From a virus, in IMG/VR virus record IMGVR_UViG_3300032668_000048, positions 1-43,663 of that record: a DNA stretch of 43,663 nucleotides, one strand, 5' to 3'. How positions within the stretch are numbered: the first letter of the stretch is position 1; the number at the start of each line of letters is the position of its first letter. Positions 3,727 through 36,567 of this stretch are shown piece by piece. The translations under genes and the position numbers were made by a program. The notes beneath the pieces were generated by a model. It saw only the letters and a list, made by a program, of their open reading frames with translations, had not been told where the DNA came from and did not search any database.

Positions 3727-4332
3727 ATGAAATATATTAAATCTCTAAATAATTTTTTAAATGAAAGTGTGGAATTACCTCACTTTCCAAATTCTATAAC
3801 ACTATGGCATGGAGGTAATCTTGAAGATATAGATTATAATTTATCACACAAAACAGGTCGTTTTGAATATGGAGCTGGGTTATATCTGACAAGTGATTTA
3901 AACTTAGTATTAAATAAATATGCAAAAGGAAATAGAAAATTATATTTAGTAACAGTAGAAAAGGGAGTTGATGTAGATGATGCTTATATTGATTTTGAAA
4001 AAGTTAAAACATTTATAAATCATTATGTTAAAGTTTCTTTTAGAAAAGTATTTATTTCACAATTAGAGATTTTAGTAAAAGATGGTAAAGTACCAGCTTA
4101 TAGAATTAATAATATGATTATTAATAATAAAGCTATATCCGCATCAAAAACAAGTTTATTAAGAAAATTTTTAATTGATAATGGAGTTGATTATGAATAT
4201 ACTGATACTGCTTATATGGGTAAATTATTAGTTGTGTATAATATGAATAAAGTTAAAAATATAATAAGAATTAACCACAAAGATGTTCAAGCATGGAATA
4301 AGTTATTAGATGAGAAAAATTTTGAATTTTAA
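3727..4332 (+). CDS. Putative ADP-ribosyltransferase-fold protein with capsid-targeting-like N-terminus
   Basis: 201 aa. Residues 1-13 (MKYIKSLNNFLNE) look like a T4-type capsid-targeting peptide ending in an L-x-E cleavage motif. Then 'ITLWHGGNLED' (His28), 'GRFEYGAGLYLTSDLNLVLNKYA' and 'LYLVTVEKG' match the start of the H-Y-E ART fold (DUF3990-like): His for NAD binding, then the G-x-G-Y-L-T strand. The catalytic Glu is not clear. If packaged, it could be injected and modify host proteins, as T4 Alt does. Fold moderately supported, target unknown. Confidence 0.55.
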   Translation: MKYIKSLNNFLNESVELPHFPNSITLWHGGNLEDIDYNLSHKTGRFEYGAGLYLTSDLNLVLNKYAKGNRKLYLVTVEKGVDVDDAYIDFEKVKTFINHYVKVSFRKVFISQLEILVKDGKVPAYRINNMIINNKAISASKTSLLRKFLIDNGVDYEYTDTAYMGKLLVVYNMNKVKNIIRINHKDVQAWNKLLDEKNFEF

Positions 4333-4578: not shown

Positions 4579-4825
4579 AAAGTTTAAAGCATTAAAAGAT
4601 AACTTTATGCACCCCGTTACCCCCGTTAAAAAAGGTGATGTAATAGAAATCCGTGTTTATACAGCAAAAGGATTACCTGCGGGTGAAATAAAAATAGAAG
4701 ATGGACTTAATTTAAGTCAAAAAAACTTCTTCTTGAATGATAATTTCTATGAAAACTTTATTGAGTTTGATAAGTATAGAGAATTAGTAATTGATAAAAT
4801 ATTAGAAGATGAAAACATATCCTAA
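4571..4825 (+). CDS. Member of the 'REQ-INKIL' small-protein family
   Basis: 84 aa. An SH3-like beta-rich body ('PVKKGDVIEIRVYTAKG') ends in the shared tail 'KYRELVIDKILEDENIS', as in the array at 36637-40520. It overlaps the upstream gene by 8 nt and the RNA ligase by 17 nt, so it is probably translationally coupled. Function unknown. Confidence 0.65.
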   Translation: MTKKFKALKDNFMHPVTPVKKGDVIEIRVYTAKGLPAGEIKIEDGLNLSQKNFFLNDNFYENFIEFDKYRELVIDKILEDENIS

Positions 4826-5468
4826 AATGGATTATTGGAATAAAGGTAAATTTGGTGAATATTCTTATTCATTCATCAAGTATGATGGGAGTAATTTGCG
4901 TTTTTGTTGGAATAGAAAAAGAGGTTGGTATAAATTTGGTTCTCGTAATGTAATGATTGATGAAAATACTCCTATCTTAGGAGAAGGTGTAACTATATTC
5001 TTAAATACTTGGGCTGATGAATTAGAAAAAATATTTAAGAAAAAAGAATATAGAAATATAGATCAATTCATAGCATTTGGAGAATTTTATGGAGAAAACT
5101 CTTTTGCTGGACAACACGTAGAAACAGATGCAAAAAAAGTATCTATATTTGATATAGATCAATATAAAAAAGGATTTGTACCCCCAAGACAATTTATAGA
5201 AGATTTTGGACACTTAGATATACCTAAAGTAGTTTATCAAGGTGAATATACACAAGAAATGATTGATGATGTTAGAAATAATAAATTTGGTCTTAAAGAA
5301 GGTGTAGTTTCTAAAGGTGTATATAAATCAAAAGGAAAAGATGTAGTTTGGAGTTGTAAAATAAAGACAAACGAGTGGCTTCAAAAAGTTAAAATAAAAT
5401 TCGGAGAAAAATCTTTATTAGATGAAGTAAACGGAGATAGAGAATTATTTAACCTTATAAATAAATAA
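4809..5468 (+). CDS. RNA ligase (Rnl2/PF09414-like)
   Basis: 219 aa. Nucleotidyltransferase motif I is 'IKYDGSNLR' with adenylated Lys24, motif III 'FIAFGEFYGENSF', motif IV 'LKEGVVSKG', motif V 'SCKIKTNEWL'. It should use ATP to seal 5'-phosphate/3'-OH RNA ends, typically nicked tRNA anticodon loops. It is shorter than T4 Rnl2 and lacks an obvious C-terminal domain. KptA, P-loop kinases and interrupted tRNA-like genes lie in the same window, consistent with RNA repair or splicing. Confidence 0.8.
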   Translation: MKTYPKMDYWNKGKFGEYSYSFIKYDGSNLRFCWNRKRGWYKFGSRNVMIDENTPILGEGVTIFLNTWADELEKIFKKKEYRNIDQFIAFGEFYGENSFAGQHVETDAKKVSIFDIDQYKKGFVPPRQFIEDFGHLDIPKVVYQGEYTQEMIDDVRNNKFGLKEGVVSKGVYKSKGKDVVWSCKIKTNEWLQKVKIKFGEKSLLDEVNGDRELFNLINK

Positions 5469-6302: not shown

Positions 6303-7364
6303 ATGGAATGTCCTTTTTGTAAAATAAACGCTATTAGTAATCATATTTACTTTTGTAAATTAAATACGGAAGAAAAGTCAAAAGATAAAATTAAATTTTT
6401 ATATCTTATACACAATAGACCTGATATATTTGAATATGAAAAAATATATAATTCTTATATAATTAATGAAATGTCATTACCTAAGATAAAAGAATTCTAT
6501 AATATAGATTTTAAGAGTATTCAATTTATGTTGAATTGGTATAATATACCAATCCGAAACCAAAAACAATCTTTTCAAATTTCTAATGATTCAAGACAAA
6601 ATACAAATATCAAAAAATACGGAGCAATAAACCCTTTATGTAAAGGAACAAAATCTTTTGATAAGAAAAATAATTCAGTTAAAGAAAAATATGGAGTAGA
6701 CAATGTTTTTCAAATAAAAGAAATAGTAGAAAGAATAAATAATGATGAATCCTGTTTAAAAAAACATGGTATGACTAGAAAAGAATTAATTAGAAATAAT
6801 TCTAAAAAGTTTTGGAACTCTTTAGATTTTAAAGAAAAAGAAGAATTAATAAAAACTATTAATTTAAAAAGAAATTCAACATTCAAAGAAAATTATGGTG
6901 GTCATCCAATGAAAAATATAATCTTTAAAAATAATTTTTATAAAAATATACAAAATAAGTATGGAGTTAATAACGTATTTCAATGTGATTTTGTTATTAA
7001 ACAAATAAAAGAAACAAAGATAGATAATAATCTAATTATTTCTGATGAATTTTTAGAACCTTTTTTTATCTATAAAAGGGATTGTATAAAATTAACAAAA
7101 AGAAATGTAAAAACATTATTAAAAAATTGGGATGGTTATGATTATTATGATGGTGAATATATTAAAGATAACTTTAATTTAAAATCTAATAATAGATTAT
7201 ATCCAACAATAGATCATAAAAAAAGTATATTTTACGGATTTATTAATAATATAAGCTCTGAAGAAATTTCTGACATAAATAATCTATGTTATACTAAAAA
7301 ATGTATAAATAGTAAAAAATGGTTAAAATGTGAAGAGGAGTTTAAAAAAACTAACTATAATTGA
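6303..7364 (+). CDS. Homing-endonuclease-like protein with 'KYG-x-x-N' repeats
   Basis: 353 aa. An N-terminal CPFC...HIYFC zinc finger, a helical HTH-like part, then several 'KYGVDNVFQ / NYGGHPM / KYGVNNVFQ' repeats typical of DUF7487-type phage nucleases. The C-terminus 'PTIDHKKSIFYGF..INNLCYTKKCINSKKW' looks like an HNH-type active site (Asp-His and a distal Asn). The last 10 nt overlap the convergent gene 7355-7867. Probably a mobile endonuclease. Confidence 0.65.
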   Translation: MECPFCKINAISNHIYFCKLNTEEKSKDKIKFLYLIHNRPDIFEYEKIYNSYIINEMSLPKIKEFYNIDFKSIQFMLNWYNIPIRNQKQSFQISNDSRQNTNIKKYGAINPLCKGTKSFDKKNNSVKEKYGVDNVFQIKEIVERINNDESCLKKHGMTRKELIRNNSKKFWNSLDFKEKEELIKTINLKRNSTFKENYGGHPMKNIIFKNNFYKNIQNKYGVNNVFQCDFVIKQIKETKIDNNLIISDEFLEPFFIYKRDCIKLTKRNVKTLLKNWDGYDYYDGEYIKDNFNLKSNNRLYPTIDHKKSIFYGFINNISSEEISDINNLCYTKKCINSKKWLKCEEEFKKTNYN

Positions 7365-7867
7365 TTAAATATCAAATTCCAGTTTTTATCAAAAACTAAC
7401 CAATTATTTTCAATTAAAGGTTTTAATTCATCCATATATTTATATGGGTCATTATTTATATGTATTCCTATAATATATTTTTTAATATCTATAATTTTAC
7501 CTTTTAGGATTTTATCTTCTGATTGAATCACCTCTAAATCATATGGAGGATTACTGCCAAGTTTTTTATATTCTTCAAAATCGTAAGGAACGATTTTATA
7601 TTTTGTTTTTATTAAATCTCTATCCAATATTAATTGGCAATCGGCTGTTCCTCTAATACTAAAATCTCTAAACCATCCATTATTATTATATAAATAATCT
7701 TTACTTCTGGAAGTAGATATGCCATAATCAACTTCACTTAAACCATATAAAACATTTTCTTTTAATATACTTATTAAATTTTCAAATGATGTGGCATGAT
7801 ATAAGATATTTTTATATCTTAATTCTTTTGGTAAAATTGCCTCATTTATACTTTTCAAATATTTCAT
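7355..7867 (-). CDS. Putative ART-fold protein with capsid-targeting-like N-terminus
   Basis: 170 aa. N-terminus 'MKYLKSINEAIL' ends with an I-x-E motif. Then 'NILYHATSFENLISILKENVL' (His24) and 'YGISTSRSKDY' (S-T-S-R), 'CQLILDRDLI', 'KIVPYD' and 'EVIQSEDKI' (possible catalytic Glu). This layout is seen in ADP-ribosyltransferase-fold phage toxins and Tpt1-like folds. It is the second such protein with this leader after 3727. Co-directional with 7870 and 8223, all reading from a divergent region near 8511-8569. Ends in TAG. Confidence 0.55.
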   Translation of the reverse strand: MKYLKSINEAILPKELRYKNILYHATSFENLISILKENVLYGLSEVDYGISTSRSKDYLYNNNGWFRDFSIRGTADCQLILDRDLIKTKYKIVPYDFEEYKKLGSNPPYDLEVIQSEDKILKGKIIDIKKYIIGIHINNDPYKYMDELKPLIENNWLVFDKNWNLIFNQL

Positions 7868-14200: not shown

Positions 14201-14281
14201 GGGCGAATGGCTGAGTGGTCGAAAGCCTATAGTTCTAAACTATAGAATACAACAACATAGGTTCAAATCCTATTTTGCCCT
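14201..14281 (+). tRNA. Predicted amber-suppressor tRNA (anticodon CTA), class II
   Basis: Acceptor GGGCGAA/TTTGCCC, D-stem GGC/GCC, a fully paired anticodon stem TATAG/CTATA with 7-nt loop TTCTAAA (anticodon CTA at 14235-14237), long variable arm, T-arm ATAGG/CCTAT with TTCAAAT. CTA pairs with UAG. It lies right after two tRNA-Tyr genes, and its loop differs from that of Tyr copy 1 only by G34 to C. The body also resembles Ser/Leu tRNAs, so the charged amino acid is not known. Confidence 0.75.
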
Positions 14282-14292
14282 CTAAAAAATAA

Positions 14293-20530: not shown

Positions 20531-21061
20531 ATGAAAAAAGAATTAGAAAAAAAGAGCAAATATTTAGCCAAATTATTAAGACATGAACCCGAAGATTTAG
20601 TATTAGATAAATCAGGTTGGGTAACAACAGACGCAGTATGTTCAAAATTAGATATATCAAAAGCAGACTTAGAATTAATCGTTTCTACTAACGATAAGAA
20701 ACGTTTTGAATTTGATACTACTAAAACCAAAATTAGAGCAAGTCAAGGACATTCCATTCAAACATTGGAAGTTTGGAAAGATTGGGAAACTTATATTCCA
20801 ATGGGTGATTTATTTCACGGAACAGCAGAAAAAAGTGTAAACTCCATTTTACGCACAGGACTTAAATCAATTAGTAGAACTCACGTTCACTTAACAGAAA
20901 ACGAAGATACTGCTGTAAAGGTTGGTGCTCGTCATGGTGATGTAGTTTTATTATTAATTGATGCAGTTCAAATGTATAATGATGGTATTAAATTCTATAA
21001 ATCTGCGAATGGGGTTATATTAGTAGATTATGTAGCACCTGAATATATTGGTATATGGTAG
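20531..21061 (+). CDS. kptA: RNA 2'-phosphotransferase (KptA/Tpt1)
   Basis: 176 aa, the normal length. 'SKYLAKLLRHEPE' (Arg17-His18), 'KTKIRASQGHSI' (Arg69), 'LFHGTAEKSVNSILRTGL', 'RTHVHLTENEDTA' and 'VGARHGDV' (Arg134) give the complete Arg-His-Arg-Arg catalytic set. It moves an internal 2'-phosphate from RNA to NAD+, the last step after sealing by 2'-phosphate-making RNA ligases. It lies directly downstream of an interrupted tRNA-like gene and in the same window as an RNA ligase, so a role in tRNA splicing or repair is plausible. Confidence 0.93.
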   Translation: MKKELEKKSKYLAKLLRHEPEDLVLDKSGWVTTDAVCSKLDISKADLELIVSTNDKKRFEFDTTKTKIRASQGHSIQTLEVWKDWETYIPMGDLFHGTAEKSVNSILRTGLKSISRTHVHLTENEDTAVKVGARHGDVVLLLIDAVQMYNDGIKFYKSANGVILVDYVAPEYIGIW

Positions 21062-21487: not shown

Positions 21488-22747
21488 ATGAACTTAATAC
21501 AAGAATTACAATGGAGAGGTATGATACAAGATATTATACCAGGAACAGAAGAACAATTAAATAAAGAAATAAATAAAGCATACATTGGATTTGATCCAAC
21601 AGGAGATTCATTACATATCGGTAGCTTAATACCAATTATCTTACTAAATCACCTACAAAAAGCAGGACATAATCCTATTGGGCTTATTGGGGGCGCAACT
21701 GGTTTAATTGGAGATCCTAGCGGTAAAAGTAGTGAAAGGAATATGTTAGATGAAGCAACACTTTTACATAATCAAAATTGTATTCAAAAACAATTAGAAA
21801 AGTTTTTATCCAATATACAAGTGGTAAATAATCACGATTGGTTTAAGGGAATTAGTTTCTTAAATTTTATTCGTGATATTGGTAAACTTATTACTGTTAA
21901 TTCTATGATGGCTAAAGATAGTGTAAAGCGTAGAATTGATGGAGAAACTGGTATCAGTTTCACTGAGTTTACATACCAATTAATACAAGGGTTTGATTTC
22001 CTTTGGTTATTTGAAAACATGGATTGTAAAATACAAATCGGTGGAAGTGACCAATGGGGAAATATAACTACTGGTGTAGAAATAATTCGTAAGAAATTAG
22101 GTAAGGAAGCATTTGCTTTTACTTGTCCATTAGTTAAGAAAGCAGATGGTGGTAAATTTGGTAAGACAGAGAGTGGGAATGTTTGGTTAGATCCTAACAA
22201 AACATCGGTATTTGAATTTTTCCAATTTTGGTTAAAGGCTTCAGATGAAGATGCGGAAAATTGGATTAAAATCTTTACATTTTTAGATAAAGAAACAATT
22301 GACAATCTTATTTCAGAACACAATACCAATAAAAATAAAAAAATTTTACAGAGGGTATTAGCTGAAGAAGTAACTAGATTTGTTCATGGACAAGAAGAAT
22401 TAGATTTGGCGATAAAAACAAGTCAAGTATTATTTTCTGATAACACGGAAGAAGTATTAAAAAGTTTATCAAATGATGAAATAGAGAAGGTTTTGGTGGG
22501 TGTTCCTACTACGGAAGTATCTGTTAATATTGATAACTTTAATGTATTTGAGTTATTGGTTAAGTGTAATATCTTTAATAGTAAAGGTGAAGCTAAGAGA
22601 ATGTTTGATAATGGTGGGATTTTCTTAAATAAGAAAAAGTTAAACAAATTAAATTTTGAAAAAAGTGATTTGTTAAATGATCGTTTTCTCTTAATACAGA
22701 GGGGGAAAAAGAATTATTTTTTAATAAAAAACAATTTTGAAATATAA
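21488..22747 (+). CDS. tyrS: Tyrosyl-tRNA synthetase
   Basis: 419 aa, full length. 'YIGFDPTGDSLHIGS' has the HIGH-type motif at 43-46, 'GGSDQWGNI' is the Tyr/ATP pocket, and 'KFGKT' (223-227) is the KMSKS equivalent. The C-terminal 70 residues ('VFELLVKCNIFNSKGEAKRM..') form an S4 RNA-binding domain. It should charge Tyr onto tRNA-Tyr. Two tRNA-Tyr(GTA) genes and an amber tRNA lie 7 kb away. All catalytic motifs are intact. Phage-encoded TyrRS is uncommon. Confidence 0.95.
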   Translation: MNLIQELQWRGMIQDIIPGTEEQLNKEINKAYIGFDPTGDSLHIGSLIPIILLNHLQKAGHNPIGLIGGATGLIGDPSGKSSERNMLDEATLLHNQNCIQKQLEKFLSNIQVVNNHDWFKGISFLNFIRDIGKLITVNSMMAKDSVKRRIDGETGISFTEFTYQLIQGFDFLWLFENMDCKIQIGGSDQWGNITTGVEIIRKKLGKEAFAFTCPLVKKADGGKFGKTESGNVWLDPNKTSVFEFFQFWLKASDEDAENWIKIFTFLDKETIDNLISEHNTNKNKKILQRVLAEEVTRFVHGQEELDLAIKTSQVLFSDNTEEVLKSLSNDEIEKVLVGVPTTEVSVNIDNFNVFELLVKCNIFNSKGEAKRMFDNGGIFLNKKKLNKLNFEKSDLLNDRFLLIQRGKKNYFLIKNNFEI

Positions 22748-22903: not shown

Positions 22904-23389
22904 TTATTTTTTAACATATTTATGATTTTCTTTATCATATATAATTCCTAACTTATCTAAATCCATTCCGAATTTTAACCCATAACTTTTTAAACAATCT
23001 TTAATATTATTAACGGTAACCATACCAAAAGACCTATACATTAATATAGTTTGTTCTGTTAATTGAGTTATATCTCCTAATTTTGTAAAATATGGTATTT
23101 TATCACTATTATCATCGGTTCTATCATATACCCATCTAGTAACGTAATGAATACAATTATAAGATCTTCTTGTTAAGTTAACAATTTTATCTTTATCTAT
23201 ATTCATAGTTTCAACTAATTTATCTATATCTTCGGTAGAAGAAAAAGTGTGATATTGTCTTTTTGCTATGTCTAATTGTTTTTGTAATTTATCTATTTTA
23301 TTTTGAGCAGCAATTGCAGCTCTACTTGCTAATTCTTTAGAAACTTCATTTATAGTTTCTATCTCTGAGTACTTTTTTAAATGTTTCAT
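22904..23389 (-). CDS. RNA polymerase alpha-CTD-like protein with capsid-targeting-like N-terminus
   Basis: 161 aa. Residues 1-15 (MKHLKKYSEIETINE) resemble a T4-type capsid-targeting peptide with an I-N-E cleavage motif. Residues 18-50 form a coiled coil. From 70, 'VNLTRRSYNCI', then (after about 20 inserted residues) 'KLGDITQLTEQTILMYRSFG' and 'VNNIKDCLKSYGLKFGMDL' follow the alpha C-terminal domain: LT-x-R-S-x-N-C, G-D, T-E-x-x-L, I-K-x-x-L, GL-x-x-GM. Arg75 and Asn78 match the DNA-contact residues R265 and N268 of E. coli alpha. It may bind UP elements or compete with host alpha. Target inferred, fold well supported. Confidence 0.7.
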   Translation of the reverse strand: MKHLKKYSEIETINEVSKELASRAAIAAQNKIDKLQKQLDIAKRQYHTFSSTEDIDKLVETMNIDKDKIVNLTRRSYNCIHYVTRWVYDRTDDNSDKIPYFTKLGDITQLTEQTILMYRSFGMVTVNNIKDCLKSYGLKFGMDLDKLGIIYDKENHKYVKK

Positions 23390-23403: not shown

Positions 23404-25671
23404 TTATTCTGTTCCATAATCACTATCTGGAAAATCTTTACCTCCTGTTTTACGCGTGCCAATTCTAAGTGTACTTTGAAAATCATTCAAAGTATCTAAT
23501 GGTATATAATCTGTAATAATTCTTTCATTTGCATTATCTGCAAATATTAAATACTTCGTATCTTTTCCTATTATTTGTTGATTTAAAATCTTATCTTGTG
23601 ACTTTTGTGGTATTATATCCGTAAATAATCTTATATTTGTAATTTTCATATTACTTGCTAATATATTTGCTGCTACAGAATTATCTATTGTTATATCTTG
23701 TGGAACTAAAGAAAGTTGTTGTGAATAAACTAAATCTAATTTAGTTGAATTTAATTTACCTGCATCTGCTTCATCTTCAGCATCACGTTTAAATATTGAT
23801 AAAGATAATGCTTTACTTCTTTGGTCTATATTTAATACTAATCCATACCAAACAGAACTTAATAAATCAGTTGATAATGTAAAAGTATATGTAGTTGTAT
23901 TTAACTTAATTATAAAATTATTATTTAATTTATTAATTGTAAATCCTTGACTATTTATATCATCATAATAATTTATGAAGTTATAATATATACCAGGACT
24001 TAATACATTAATATTAAACCAAGAAGTATATGATATGTTATCACTTATAGCAAATACATTTTTAAAATTTCTATATATTAACGCAGTTGCTAAATATTTA
24101 ATGCTAGATAAATCATAATTAGTTTTACTAATTATATTAGAAGAATTTTCTATTAATTCTCTATCAATATCTGCAAATATTTCATATCTTAATAAGTCTC
24201 TTGATTGAGTTTTAAATTGTTCTATATTAGAAGATGCTTTTTTATCTAATTCATTTTCCAATCCAAATAAATCATTAATTGTAGAATTTTGAGTTAGTTT
24301 AGCAACTTTTTCAGTCATGCTCTCATTACCACCAATAATATTTGCTTTTTGAACATATTTTTTAAGAGCTATTTTATAGTATGTAGATGTGTTATTAAAA
24401 TATTTAAAAGCATAAGCATGTTCTACTTGGAACATTCTATTTAATTCACAAAACCATAAAAAGTCTTCTTTAGAAGGTCTTTTCTCTACACCAAATGCAT
24501 TCTTAAATGCATCTTTTGGTACATGTATTTCAAATGCTTCAAACAAACTTAAATCAAATTGATTCATAGTAATTTGATTATCAGGAAATTGATTATTATC
24601 TACACTAACTTTTAATTGTTCATCACATACATAATTAAGTAATTGATATTCATGGAAAGTATAATCAGTTCCATTTTTATCAGGGTCAGTTAAGAAATAA
24701 ACTACATCGTGTCCAACTATTTCGTTAACATCATTACTTAATTTAGTTAATAAATTAACTGCTTCTGGTATTTTATAAGGCTTAAATAAATTAGCTTTAT
24801 CTTGTGATGATAATTGATATAATTTTTGTGATTGATCACCATTTACAATAACATCTGTTCTTTGAGCAGTTTCGGGTGTATTAATTAATCCTAATATTAA
24901 ACAATTGCAATCTTCACGAGATCCATATACATTAGTTTTTTTAGAATCATTTGTTACATTTTGAAAATCTCCTATTAAATTTATATCATAAATTTTTACA
25001 TTATTAGTTGCTTCAATCAAATATTCTATTTGAAAAAATCTAATTGGTGTAATTCTTTCCGAAATAATATTTTCTTTTGTAAAATTTGTCCAATTTGTCA
25101 CCGTTCTACCATAATCTTGCGAATATCTATAACTAATAGTATAATTACTATTATTTGCTATAACTTCTATATCAGTTATCTTAAATACCTTATATACATA
25201 AGGTGGCTTATATATAATATTTTGTCCTGTTGTCAAAGTAGCAGTAGCTGTTTCTGTTTTAATTAAATTTCTTTGAGTATTTCCTAATAAAGTCCAATTT
25301 AATAAAGTTATTGAACCTGATGTAGTTGATCCTTCTCTAGTAAATTTTATTTCTATATAAAACTTATAATCACCACTCCATGCTGGAAAATTATCTATAC
25401 TTTTATTTAAGGGTAAATAAGTTGTCCATTTTACTCCATCTCTTGATATTCTATATGTCGTTGTTAAATAACGTGTAGATGTTTCACCAGTTGAATTATA
25501 ATTAAATGTTTTTAACTTTTCTACACCACTTACATTATTTATGTATATAGAATGGGAATTAATTATCCCATCAAAAAGTGGATATGAATCAGTTAATCCG
25601 CTTGCTGTGGCAGCATAAACATCTGAAATTTCTAAATATCCTGTTGTAAAATCTGTTATTATGTTTTGCAT
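23404..25671 (-). CDS. Large beta-rich probable virion protein with LamG/ConA-like C-terminal part
   Basis: 755 aa, Thr/Ser/Asn-rich, no enzyme motif. Residues 1-230 look like repeated beta sandwiches ('WTTYLPLNKSIDNFPAW', 'KFYIEIKFT'). A helical middle (270-520) contains 'FLWFCELNRMFQVEHAYAF'. Residues about 550-700 ('WFNINVLSPGIYYNF', 'WYGLVLNIDQRSKALSLSIF') resemble a LamG/concanavalin fold. Probably a tail, baseplate or fibre component. It has a minus-strand ATTAATATATA promoter. The N-terminus 'MQNIITDFTTGYLEISDVY' has no signal peptide. Confidence 0.55.
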   Translation of the reverse strand: MQNIITDFTTGYLEISDVYAATASGLTDSYPLFDGIINSHSIYINNVSGVEKLKTFNYNSTGETSTRYLTTTYRISRDGVKWTTYLPLNKSIDNFPAWSGDYKFYIEIKFTREGSTTSGSITLLNWTLLGNTQRNLIKTETATATLTTGQNIIYKPPYVYKVFKITDIEVIANNSNYTISYRYSQDYGRTVTNWTNFTKENIISERITPIRFFQIEYLIEATNNVKIYDINLIGDFQNVTNDSKKTNVYGSREDCNCLILGLINTPETAQRTDVIVNGDQSQKLYQLSSQDKANLFKPYKIPEAVNLLTKLSNDVNEIVGHDVVYFLTDPDKNGTDYTFHEYQLLNYVCDEQLKVSVDNNQFPDNQITMNQFDLSLFEAFEIHVPKDAFKNAFGVEKRPSKEDFLWFCELNRMFQVEHAYAFKYFNNTSTYYKIALKKYVQKANIIGGNESMTEKVAKLTQNSTINDLFGLENELDKKASSNIEQFKTQSRDLLRYEIFADIDRELIENSSNIISKTNYDLSSIKYLATALIYRNFKNVFAISDNISYTSWFNINVLSPGIYYNFINYYDDINSQGFTINKLNNNFIIKLNTTTYTFTLSTDLLSSVWYGLVLNIDQRSKALSLSIFKRDAEDEADAGKLNSTKLDLVYSQQLSLVPQDITIDNSVAANILASNMKITNIRLFTDIIPQKSQDKILNQQIIGKDTKYLIFADNANERIITDYIPLDTLNDFQSTLRIGTRKTGGKDFPDSDYGTE

Positions 25672-35505: not shown

Positions 35506-36567
35506 ATGAAAAAATTTAAGTTAGTTTATTCTTCAAATAAAGAAGAATTTGAGAAAGAGGTAGAAAAATATCTCAACGAAGGTTATGAAATTAATGGGAA
35601 TGTATCAAAATCAGAAAATGGATATATTATCACATTGATAAAAAAAGAAAAAATAGAAATTCCTATCGAAGAATCTAAAATTTCTTCTAAAAAAGAAATT
35701 TTATTTAGCACTAAATTAGTAAATGAGAAACAGGTAGAAATACAAGAAGGAAAATTAGTATCATTTGATGAAAATCCTTTTTATAAAAATATAGTAGGAT
35801 TAAGAAAACCTTTTTTAAAATATGAATATTCAATAGATGAAACAAAGATAATTAATAATTACCGAAAAAATCCATTATTATTTTTTAATAGTTTATATAT
35901 AACAACTTATAATGATCTAACAAGGATTAAATTAAGAGATTACCAAGAAGAAATTCTTAAAAATTATTTTGATTATAAATATAATATAAATATGATGTCA
36001 AGACAATTAGGCTCTTCTCTAATTAATTCTTTAATATCTTTATATGAAGCTTGTATAAATGGTAAAAAAATAATTATACTATGTAATACAAAATCAGAAT
36101 GTTTTGAAATAATAGAAAAAATCGAAAATTTATACAAAAATTTACCATTTTATATAAAACCAGGTATTCTAAATATGAATAGAACACATATGATTTTTGA
36201 TAATGCTGGTGAAATAAACACATATGTATATGCCAAATATTTCAATATAGGTAAAAAGATAGACGTGTGTATTTTTTCTGATTTTGCTCATTCTCAATTT
36301 TCAGAAAATATATATACTAATTTATACCCTACATTATCTTCGGAAAATGGTAAAATTATAATAAACTCAAGTCCAAATGGAAATAATTTTTTCTACAAAT
36401 TATTCCAAAATGCTGAAAGATTAGAAAATGATCCTTTAAAAACCAATTTCAAAGCAAATAGGTATTATTGGTTTCAAGTTCCTAGAAGTAAAGAATGGAT
36501 GTATAATCTAATTGATATGATAGGCAAAGATAAATTTAATATGGAATATAACTTACAAATCATTTAA
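35506..36567 (+). CDS. Terminase-large-subunit-like ATPase with lost catalytic residues and DUF1737-like N-terminus
   Basis: 353 aa. Residues 1-48 ('FKLVYSSNKEEFEKEVEKYLNEGYEI') look like DUF1737. From 120 on it follows the T4 gp17 ATPase: 'RIKLRDYQEEILKNYF', 'MMSRQLGSSLINSL', 'NLPFYIKPGI', 'CIFSDFAHSQF', 'IIINSSPNGNNFFYKLF'. In Walker A the expected G-K-T is G169-S170-S171, and the Walker B D-E pair is S258-D259. The protein ends before any nuclease domain. So it can hardly hydrolyse ATP as a motor. It could regulate packaging, act as a decoy, or be a decaying copy. Reading frame fully open. Confidence 0.75.
   Translation: MKKFKLVYSSNKEEFEKEVEKYLNEGYEINGNVSKSENGYIITLIKKEKIEIPIEESKISSKKEILFSTKLVNEKQVEIQEGKLVSFDENPFYKNIVGLRKPFLKYEYSIDETKIINNYRKNPLLFFNSLYITTYNDLTRIKLRDYQEEILKNYFDYKYNINMMSRQLGSSLINSLISLYEACINGKKIIILCNTKSECFEIIEKIENLYKNLPFYIKPGILNMNRTHMIFDNAGEINTYVYAKYFNIGKKIDVCIFSDFAHSQFSENIYTNLYPTLSSENGKIIINSSPNGNNFFYKLFQNAERLENDPLKTNFKANRYYWFQVPRSKEWMYNLIDMIGKDKFNMEYNLQII

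What the first reader, a model, noticed from the sequence alone, without database searches (positions are those of the whole stretch)
22904..23389. Alpha-CTD mimic with a capsid-targeting-like leader
The C-terminal 90 residues follow the RNA polymerase alpha C-terminal domain, including equivalents of the DNA-contact residues R265 and N268 (Arg75, Asn78), while the N-terminus looks like a T4-type capsid-targeting peptide with an I-N-E cleavage motif. T4 packages Alt, which modifies host alpha. This phage may instead package and inject a free alpha-CTD that occupies promoters or activators. I know of no described phage protein of this build.
Basis: partly seen in the sequence, partly recalled or inferred. 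Interest (0 to 1): 0.88.

Follow-up and report, generated by a model that had tools for sequence, protein, structure and literature searches.

The report
Huge-phage cargo-tagged RNA-polymerase alpha domain
A fragment of a huge bacteriophage encodes a small protein that joins a DNA-binding domain copied from bacterial RNA polymerase to a head-packaging-type leader shared by about a hundred proteins in a related phage, so the phage probably carries the domain in its head and injects it to influence host gene expression.

Summary
Window 22904-23389 (minus strand, 161 aa) carries a real RNA-polymerase alpha C-terminal domain (alphaCTD). NCBIfam rpoA matches at E 1.2e-8, a profile built without it scores 31.1 bits against 12.7 for the best of 5000 shuffles, and Foldseek's best 39 PDB matches are all RNAP alpha. 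Equivalents of R265, N268 and G296 are kept. K298, E302 and the sigma-contact residues are not, and 16 residues are inserted after helix 1.

The leader is also real. MK[YH][LI]K.[FY] starts 106 of 894 ORFs in the related megaphage LR745206 (0.9 expected) on about 95 unrelated bodies. The stricter T4 capsid-targeting core occurs 19 times there (0.7 expected). In T4 the same pattern finds only two ORFs, which carry the T4 internal-protein leader. All five large kin tested carry an S77 (gp21-type) protease match, below the Pfam cut-off. The gene follows a neck-protein gene by 14 nt and ends at a strong terminator, so it is probably late.

Best reading: a packaged and injected alphaCTD that binds promoter DNA or alphaCTD partners. 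Packaging is well supported by inference; the effect on transcription is untested. AlphaCTD-only phage proteins are already annotated, so the new part is the cargo form. No relative of this protein was found in 35 kin records.

The parts
22904..23389 (-). 161-aa ORF: leader + helical N-terminal half + alphaCTD
23345..23389 (-). capsid-targeting-like leader MKHLKKYSEIETINE (residues 1-15), putative cleavage after E15 (I-N-E)
   Evidence: clade leader profile and T4 control; cleavage rule L/I-X-E from PMC9026906
22946..23188 (-). alphaCTD-like domain, residues 68-148; R75 = R265 (codon 23165-23167), N78 = N268 (codon 23156-23158), G122 = G296
23102..23149 (-). 16-residue insertion (81-96) between alphaCTD helices 1 and 2, low confidence in the model
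   Evidence: alignment A4, pLDDT < 50 at 88-101
23404..25671 (-). 755-aa neck-type virion protein gene, 14 nt upstream on the same strand; conserved in huge-phage kin
   Evidence: 'neck protein' annotation in Tenacibaculum phage PTm1
22864..22899 (.). symmetrical intrinsic terminator (16-bp stem), end of the neck-alphaCTD transcript
   Evidence: -22.1 kcal/mol, z -8.45
7355..7867 (-). another leader-bearing ORF (MKYLKSINEAIL), 170 aa
3727..4332 (+). another leader-bearing ORF (MKYIKSLNNFLNES), 201 aa
1916..2197 (+). another leader-bearing ORF (MKYLKLFDNYTED), 93 aa, zinc-ribbon-like

Best explanation
The protein is head cargo of a Mahaphage-type huge phage of Bacteroidetes. It is made late, from the neck-protein transcript. 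The leader targets it into the prohead core, and the S77-type prohead protease removes the leader after I-N-E (residue 15). The rest is ejected with the DNA. In the new host the alphaCTD fold binds A/T-rich promoter DNA, or the activators and sigma that alphaCTD normally touches, and biases host RNA polymerase before any phage protein is made. This is the step at which T4 injects Alt to modify R265 of host alpha. Shown here: the alphaCTD homology, the leader family, the gene position and terminator, and a host-RNAP-dependent gene set in kin. Inferred: packaging, cleavage, injection, DNA or partner binding, and the effect on transcription.
For: AlphaCTD homology and a model whose best 39 PDB matches are RNAP alpha. 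The leader is modular: 106 of 894 ORFs, 95 body clusters, 0.9 expected, with varied synonymous codons, so selection is on the peptide. The leader DNA pattern occurs 63-73 times in LR745206 and LR756502, 0 times in four Prevotella-type genomes (about 13.7 Mb), and its reversed control is 0 everywhere. The T4 core [YF]xxF[ILVMN]xE picks only two internal-protein-leader ORFs in T4, but 19 in LR745206 and 15 in 220 kb of LR756501 (0.73 and 0.24 expected). S77 protease match in 5 of 5 kin, below the curated cut-off. Leader-bearing genes with unrelated bodies occupy the same slot after the neck gene in several kin. Strong terminator right after the gene. Kin: no RNAP beta in 9 of 9 with 14 of 14 controls positive, sigma region 4 in 9 of 9. 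T4 Alt precedent: PMC2988021.
Against: No virion proteomics exists for this phage. K298, E302 and the 261-determinant residues are changed and 16 residues are inserted, so DNA or sigma contact may be weak or gone. No relative of this protein was found in kin, so conservation of the contact residues cannot be tested. The confident model used an alignment of true alphaCTDs, so its fold is partly imposed; the single-sequence model was poor (pLDDT 46). About 100 leader proteins per genome is many for head cargo.
Confidence: 0.42

Rival explanations
1. A transcription accessory that is not packaged: made in the infected cell, it helps the phage's sigma-like factor and host RNAP find phage promoters; the leader is a different sorting or assembly signal.
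For: Other phage alphaCTDs sit in transcription-type proteins, including sigma-region-4 + alphaCTD fusions (L108, L109); kin carry sigma region 4 proteins.
Against: The gene is last in a neck-protein transcript (late) and carries the leader whose T4 version is a known head-targeting signal.
Confidence: 0.2
2. Packaged, but a DNA-organising protein inside the head: the helix-hairpin-helix binds the packaged genome rather than host promoters.
For: AlphaCTD binds A/T-rich minor groove, and the phage DNA is A/T-rich; the leader points to the head.
Against: It is absent from all kin examined, whereas a genome-organising protein should be conserved.
Confidence: 0.12
3. A decoy that no longer binds DNA: it keeps the alphaCTD surface to titrate activators or sigma, or to absorb a host modification or attack aimed at alphaCTD.
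For: K298V, S299T, E302N and the insertion with R265 and N268 kept.
Against: R265, N268 and G296, the residues most tied to DNA binding, are kept; the 261-determinant for sigma is also changed.
Confidence: 0.14
4. The leader is not a head-targeting signal but, for example, an address for another phage-made compartment; the alphaCTD acts there.
For: The number of carriers (about 12% of ORFs) is larger than known head cargo sets, and the commonest leader form MK[YH]LK.[FY] differs from the T4 sequence.
Against: A graded series joins it to the exact T4 core in the same genome (MKLKKYKQFIKES, MRYLKPYKKFIEN); S77 protease present.
Confidence: 0.12

Closest known systems
RNA polymerase alpha subunit C-terminal domain (PF03118; rpoA)
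   Same: Fold, helix order, R265, N268, C269 and G296 equivalents, GLxxGM tail; about 39% identity to E. coli alphaCTD when the insertion is cut out
   Different: No alpha N-terminal domain, so it cannot assemble into RNAP as alpha does; 16-residue insertion; K298, E302 and sigma-contact residues changed; foreign leader
Phage-encoded alphaCTD proteins (Bacillus phage Goe8 c00050, Microbacterium phage Mazun gp26, Rhodococcus phage Finch, uncultured Caudovirales 'RNA polymerase, alpha subunit, C-terminal')
   Same: AlphaCTD without the rest of alpha, in a phage genome
   Different: Those whose sequence was read (Goe8, Mazun, Ruegeria V16) have no capsid-targeting-like leader; they come from unrelated phages
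T4 Alt and internal proteins IPI-IPIII with capsid targeting sequence
   Same: Short N-terminal leader with K2, a hydrophobic residue 4, an aromatic residue 7 and an L/I-X-E cleavage motif (IP leader); Alt acts on alphaCTD R265 right after injection (PMC2988021, PMC9026906)
   Different: Alt is an enzyme that modifies host alpha; this protein is an alphaCTD itself; the commonest leader form differs in sequence from T4

Membership tests
RNA_pol_A_CTD domain | Profile match over the curated cut-off | tested here: met
   25.9 bits with frame neighbours vs 23.8; 23.2, just under, in the plain scan; rpoA E 1.2e-8. Borderline for Pfam, clear for NCBIfam
RNA_pol_A_CTD domain | Fold: helix 1, short helices 2-3, helix-hairpin-helix to helix 4 | tested here: met
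   partly circular because the alignment given to AlphaFold held alphaCTDs
RNA_pol_A_CTD domain | DNA-contact residues R265, N268, G296, K298, S299, E302 | tested here: inconclusive
   three identical, S299T conservative, K298V and E302N lost
RNA_pol_A_CTD domain | Binds UP-element DNA / RNAP partners | not testable with these tools
   needs biochemistry
RNAP alpha subunit (rpoA) | Alpha N-terminal dimerisation domain | tested here: not met
   161 aa only; best rpoA score 34 bits vs equivalog cut-off 302
T4-type capsid-targeted internal protein | N-terminal CTS-like leader | tested here: met
   member of a leader family that grades into the exact T4 core; P0001 itself does not fit the strict T4 regex
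T4-type capsid-targeted internal protein | [IL]-X-E cleavage motif near the leader end | tested here: met
   I13-N14-E15; [IL]xE within residues 6-22 in 45% of leader ORFs vs 23% of others
T4-type capsid-targeted internal protein | gp21-type (S77) prohead protease in the genome | tested here: inconclusive
   weak but consistent matches in 5 of 5 large kin, below the Pfam cut-off; the window itself is a fragment and was not shown to hold one
T4-type capsid-targeted internal protein | Present and processed in the virion; injected | not testable with these tools
   needs virion mass spectrometry

The most novel reading that the evidence does not exclude
Huge phages package and inject a free RNA-polymerase alphaCTD that competes with or replaces the host domain at promoters at the moment of infection, as one of about a hundred leader-tagged cargo proteins per virion: a protein-delivery system far larger than that of T4.
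Probability: 0.3. Interest if true: 0.85.

Novelty: new variant of a known kind. Interest (0 to 1): 0.62.

Why it matters
Takeover of host transcription by injected proteins is known mainly from enzymes (T4 Alt) and virion RNA polymerases. An injected copy of the host's own promoter-reading domain would be a different strategy, and would make it testable how alphaCTD occupancy sets promoter choice in Bacteroidetes. The leader itself may let anyone list the injected protein set of megaphages from sequence: about 100 mostly uncharacterised proteins in one genome.

Tried and rejected
Single-sequence AlphaFold (pLDDT 46) was uninformative. Scans for relatives of the whole protein or its domain in viral contigs and genome contigs found none. 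PF03118 matches in kin were rejected as alphaCTDs: most cover only profile positions 28-59 inside 612-641-aa ORFs (presumably the helix-hairpin-helix of a large enzyme, not identified), and most of the rest lie in stop-filled frames. The idea that the alphaCTD was taken from a Bacteroidetes rpoA was dropped: identity to E. coli (39%) is as high as to Prevotella (35%). Matches to designed toroid repeat proteins dTor are repeat-sum artefacts. The idea of an mRNA-level start signal instead of a peptide was rejected on synonymous codon variation. A PF03431 search was a wrong family and says nothing; the PF00940 search had no positive control. Annotated-phage hits named rpoA in Salmonella and Acinetobacter records are host DNA, not phage genes.

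Full report
What is there. Window 22904-23389 is one ORF on the minus strand, 161 aa. The window is a 43.7-kb IMG/VR virus record. It is related to the megaphages LR745206 and LR756502: the neighbouring 755-aa neck-type protein is 46-47% identical to theirs, and a dozen or so other window ORFs have matches in LR745206. The five genomes over 634 kb in the huge-phage survey were placed in the Mahaphage clade with predicted Bacteroidetes hosts (PMC7162821); PMC9723777 groups LR745206 and LR756502 as close kin.

The domain. Residues 68-148 are an RNA-polymerase alphaCTD: PF03118 E 5.5e-5 and 25.9 bits in frame, NCBIfam rpoA E 1.2e-8, PDB alphaCTD chains from E 4.5e-4. An HMM from 32 Bacteroidetes and phage domains plus three others, without this protein, scores it at 31.1 bits; the best of 5000 shuffles reaches 12.7 and the best other phage ORF 10.7. 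With those relatives as alignment, AlphaFold gives helices 74-89, 104-107, 112-117 and 123-135, mostly at pLDDT about 70-85, and Foldseek's first 39 PDB matches are RNAP alpha (E 0.016 at best, probability up to 1.00). That fold is partly imposed by the alignment; the single-sequence run failed. R265, N268, C269 and G296 are kept; S299 is Thr; N294, K298 and E302 are changed; D259 and E261 (sigma contact) are changed; 16 residues are inserted after helix 1. The roles of these E. coli residues other than R265 are from my own knowledge; R265 is in PMC2988021.

The leader. In LR745206 an ungapped profile of MK[YH][LI]K.[FY] selects 106 of 894 ORFs where 0.9 are expected, on 95 unrelated body clusters (88 singletons), with varied synonymous codons. 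Of the window's ORFs, this protein scores best and three others also belong. As DNA the pattern occurs 73 times in LR756502, 63 in LR745206, 26 in LR756504 and 8-37 in other large kin. It occurs 0 times in LR756501, T4, PTm1, PAU, Lak-A1 and four Prevotella-type genomes, and the reversed control is 0 throughout. The T4 capsid-targeting core [YF]xxF[ILVMN]xE finds exactly two ORFs in T4, both starting MKTYQEFIAEA (the IP leader), 19 in LR745206 (0.73 expected) and 15 in 220 kb of LR756501 (0.24 expected). The T4 rules (residues 4 and 7 target, cleavage after L/I-X-E) are from PMC9026906. An S77 prohead protease match is present in all five kin tested, below the curated cut-off.

Position. The gene follows the neck-protein gene by 14 nt on the same strand and is closed by a 16-bp symmetrical terminator. 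Read as a late transcript, this is when heads are built. In kin the same slot often holds a leader-bearing gene with an unrelated body: a 339-aa ORF in LR745206, a 568-aa ORF in L067, a lytic-transglycosylase-like ORF (by eye) in LR756504, a 213-aa ORF in L076. In other kin the slot holds genes without the leader. So the alphaCTD looks like one insert in a cargo slot. No alphaCTD was found in 31 IMG/VR kin (many are fragments) or four megaphages.

Mechanism. Kin have no RNAP beta subunit (14 of 14 controls positive) but all nine have sigma region 4 proteins, so they probably steer host RNAP. T4 injects Alt, which ADP-ribosylates R265 of alphaCTD on entry (PMC2988021). An injected alphaCTD would act on the same node by presence instead of by modification. 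This last step is inference.

Novelty. Phage alphaCTD proteins are annotated already, and two viral contigs fuse sigma region 4 to alphaCTD. Full-text searches found no paper on capsid targeting in huge phages and no description of a phage alphaCTD mimic, within the open-licence library only. New here are the alphaCTD with a head-targeting-type leader and the size of the leader family.

Noticed in passing
LR745206 (L025-L056), LR756502, LR756504, IMG/VR kin: About 12% of ORFs in LR745206 share the N-terminal leader MK[YH][LI]K.[FY] on unrelated bodies, clustered in the genome (35 adjacent pairs vs 12 expected); likely a very large packaged-protein set.
   Followed up: partly
L108:3368-4366, L109:3266-4177, L024: Viral contigs encode HTH + sigma-70 region-4-like + alphaCTD fusion proteins, a possible one-protein promoter-recognition module.
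   Followed up: no
window 3727-4332 and 7355-7867: Two other leader-bearing ORFs look by eye like ADP-ribosyltransferase folds (LWHGG...GAGLYLT; LYHATS...), recalling T4 Alt; no Pfam support for either, and no PDB sequence match for the first (the second was not searched).
   Followed up: partly
window 14201-14282: ARAGORN calls a tRNA with CTA anticodon (named tRNA-Pyl), possibly an amber suppressor, in a tRNA cluster; the window also encodes tyrosyl-tRNA synthetase (21488-22747) and two tRNA-Tyr genes.
   Followed up: no
window 20531-21061 and 4809-5468: RNA 2'-phosphotransferase (Tpt1/KptA, Pfam E 8.9e-43) and an RNA-ligase-like ORF (by eye): a possible tRNA repair pair.
   Followed up: no
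L002:9737-10465 (MT835483): A Bacteroides-type mobile element protein with a membrane/coiled-coil N-terminus and an alphaCTD-like C-terminal domain, next to conjugation genes.
   Followed up: no
window 35506-36567: Terminase large subunit match ends after 353 aa (about half length); the gene may be split by an intron, an intein or a frameshift.
   Followed up: no
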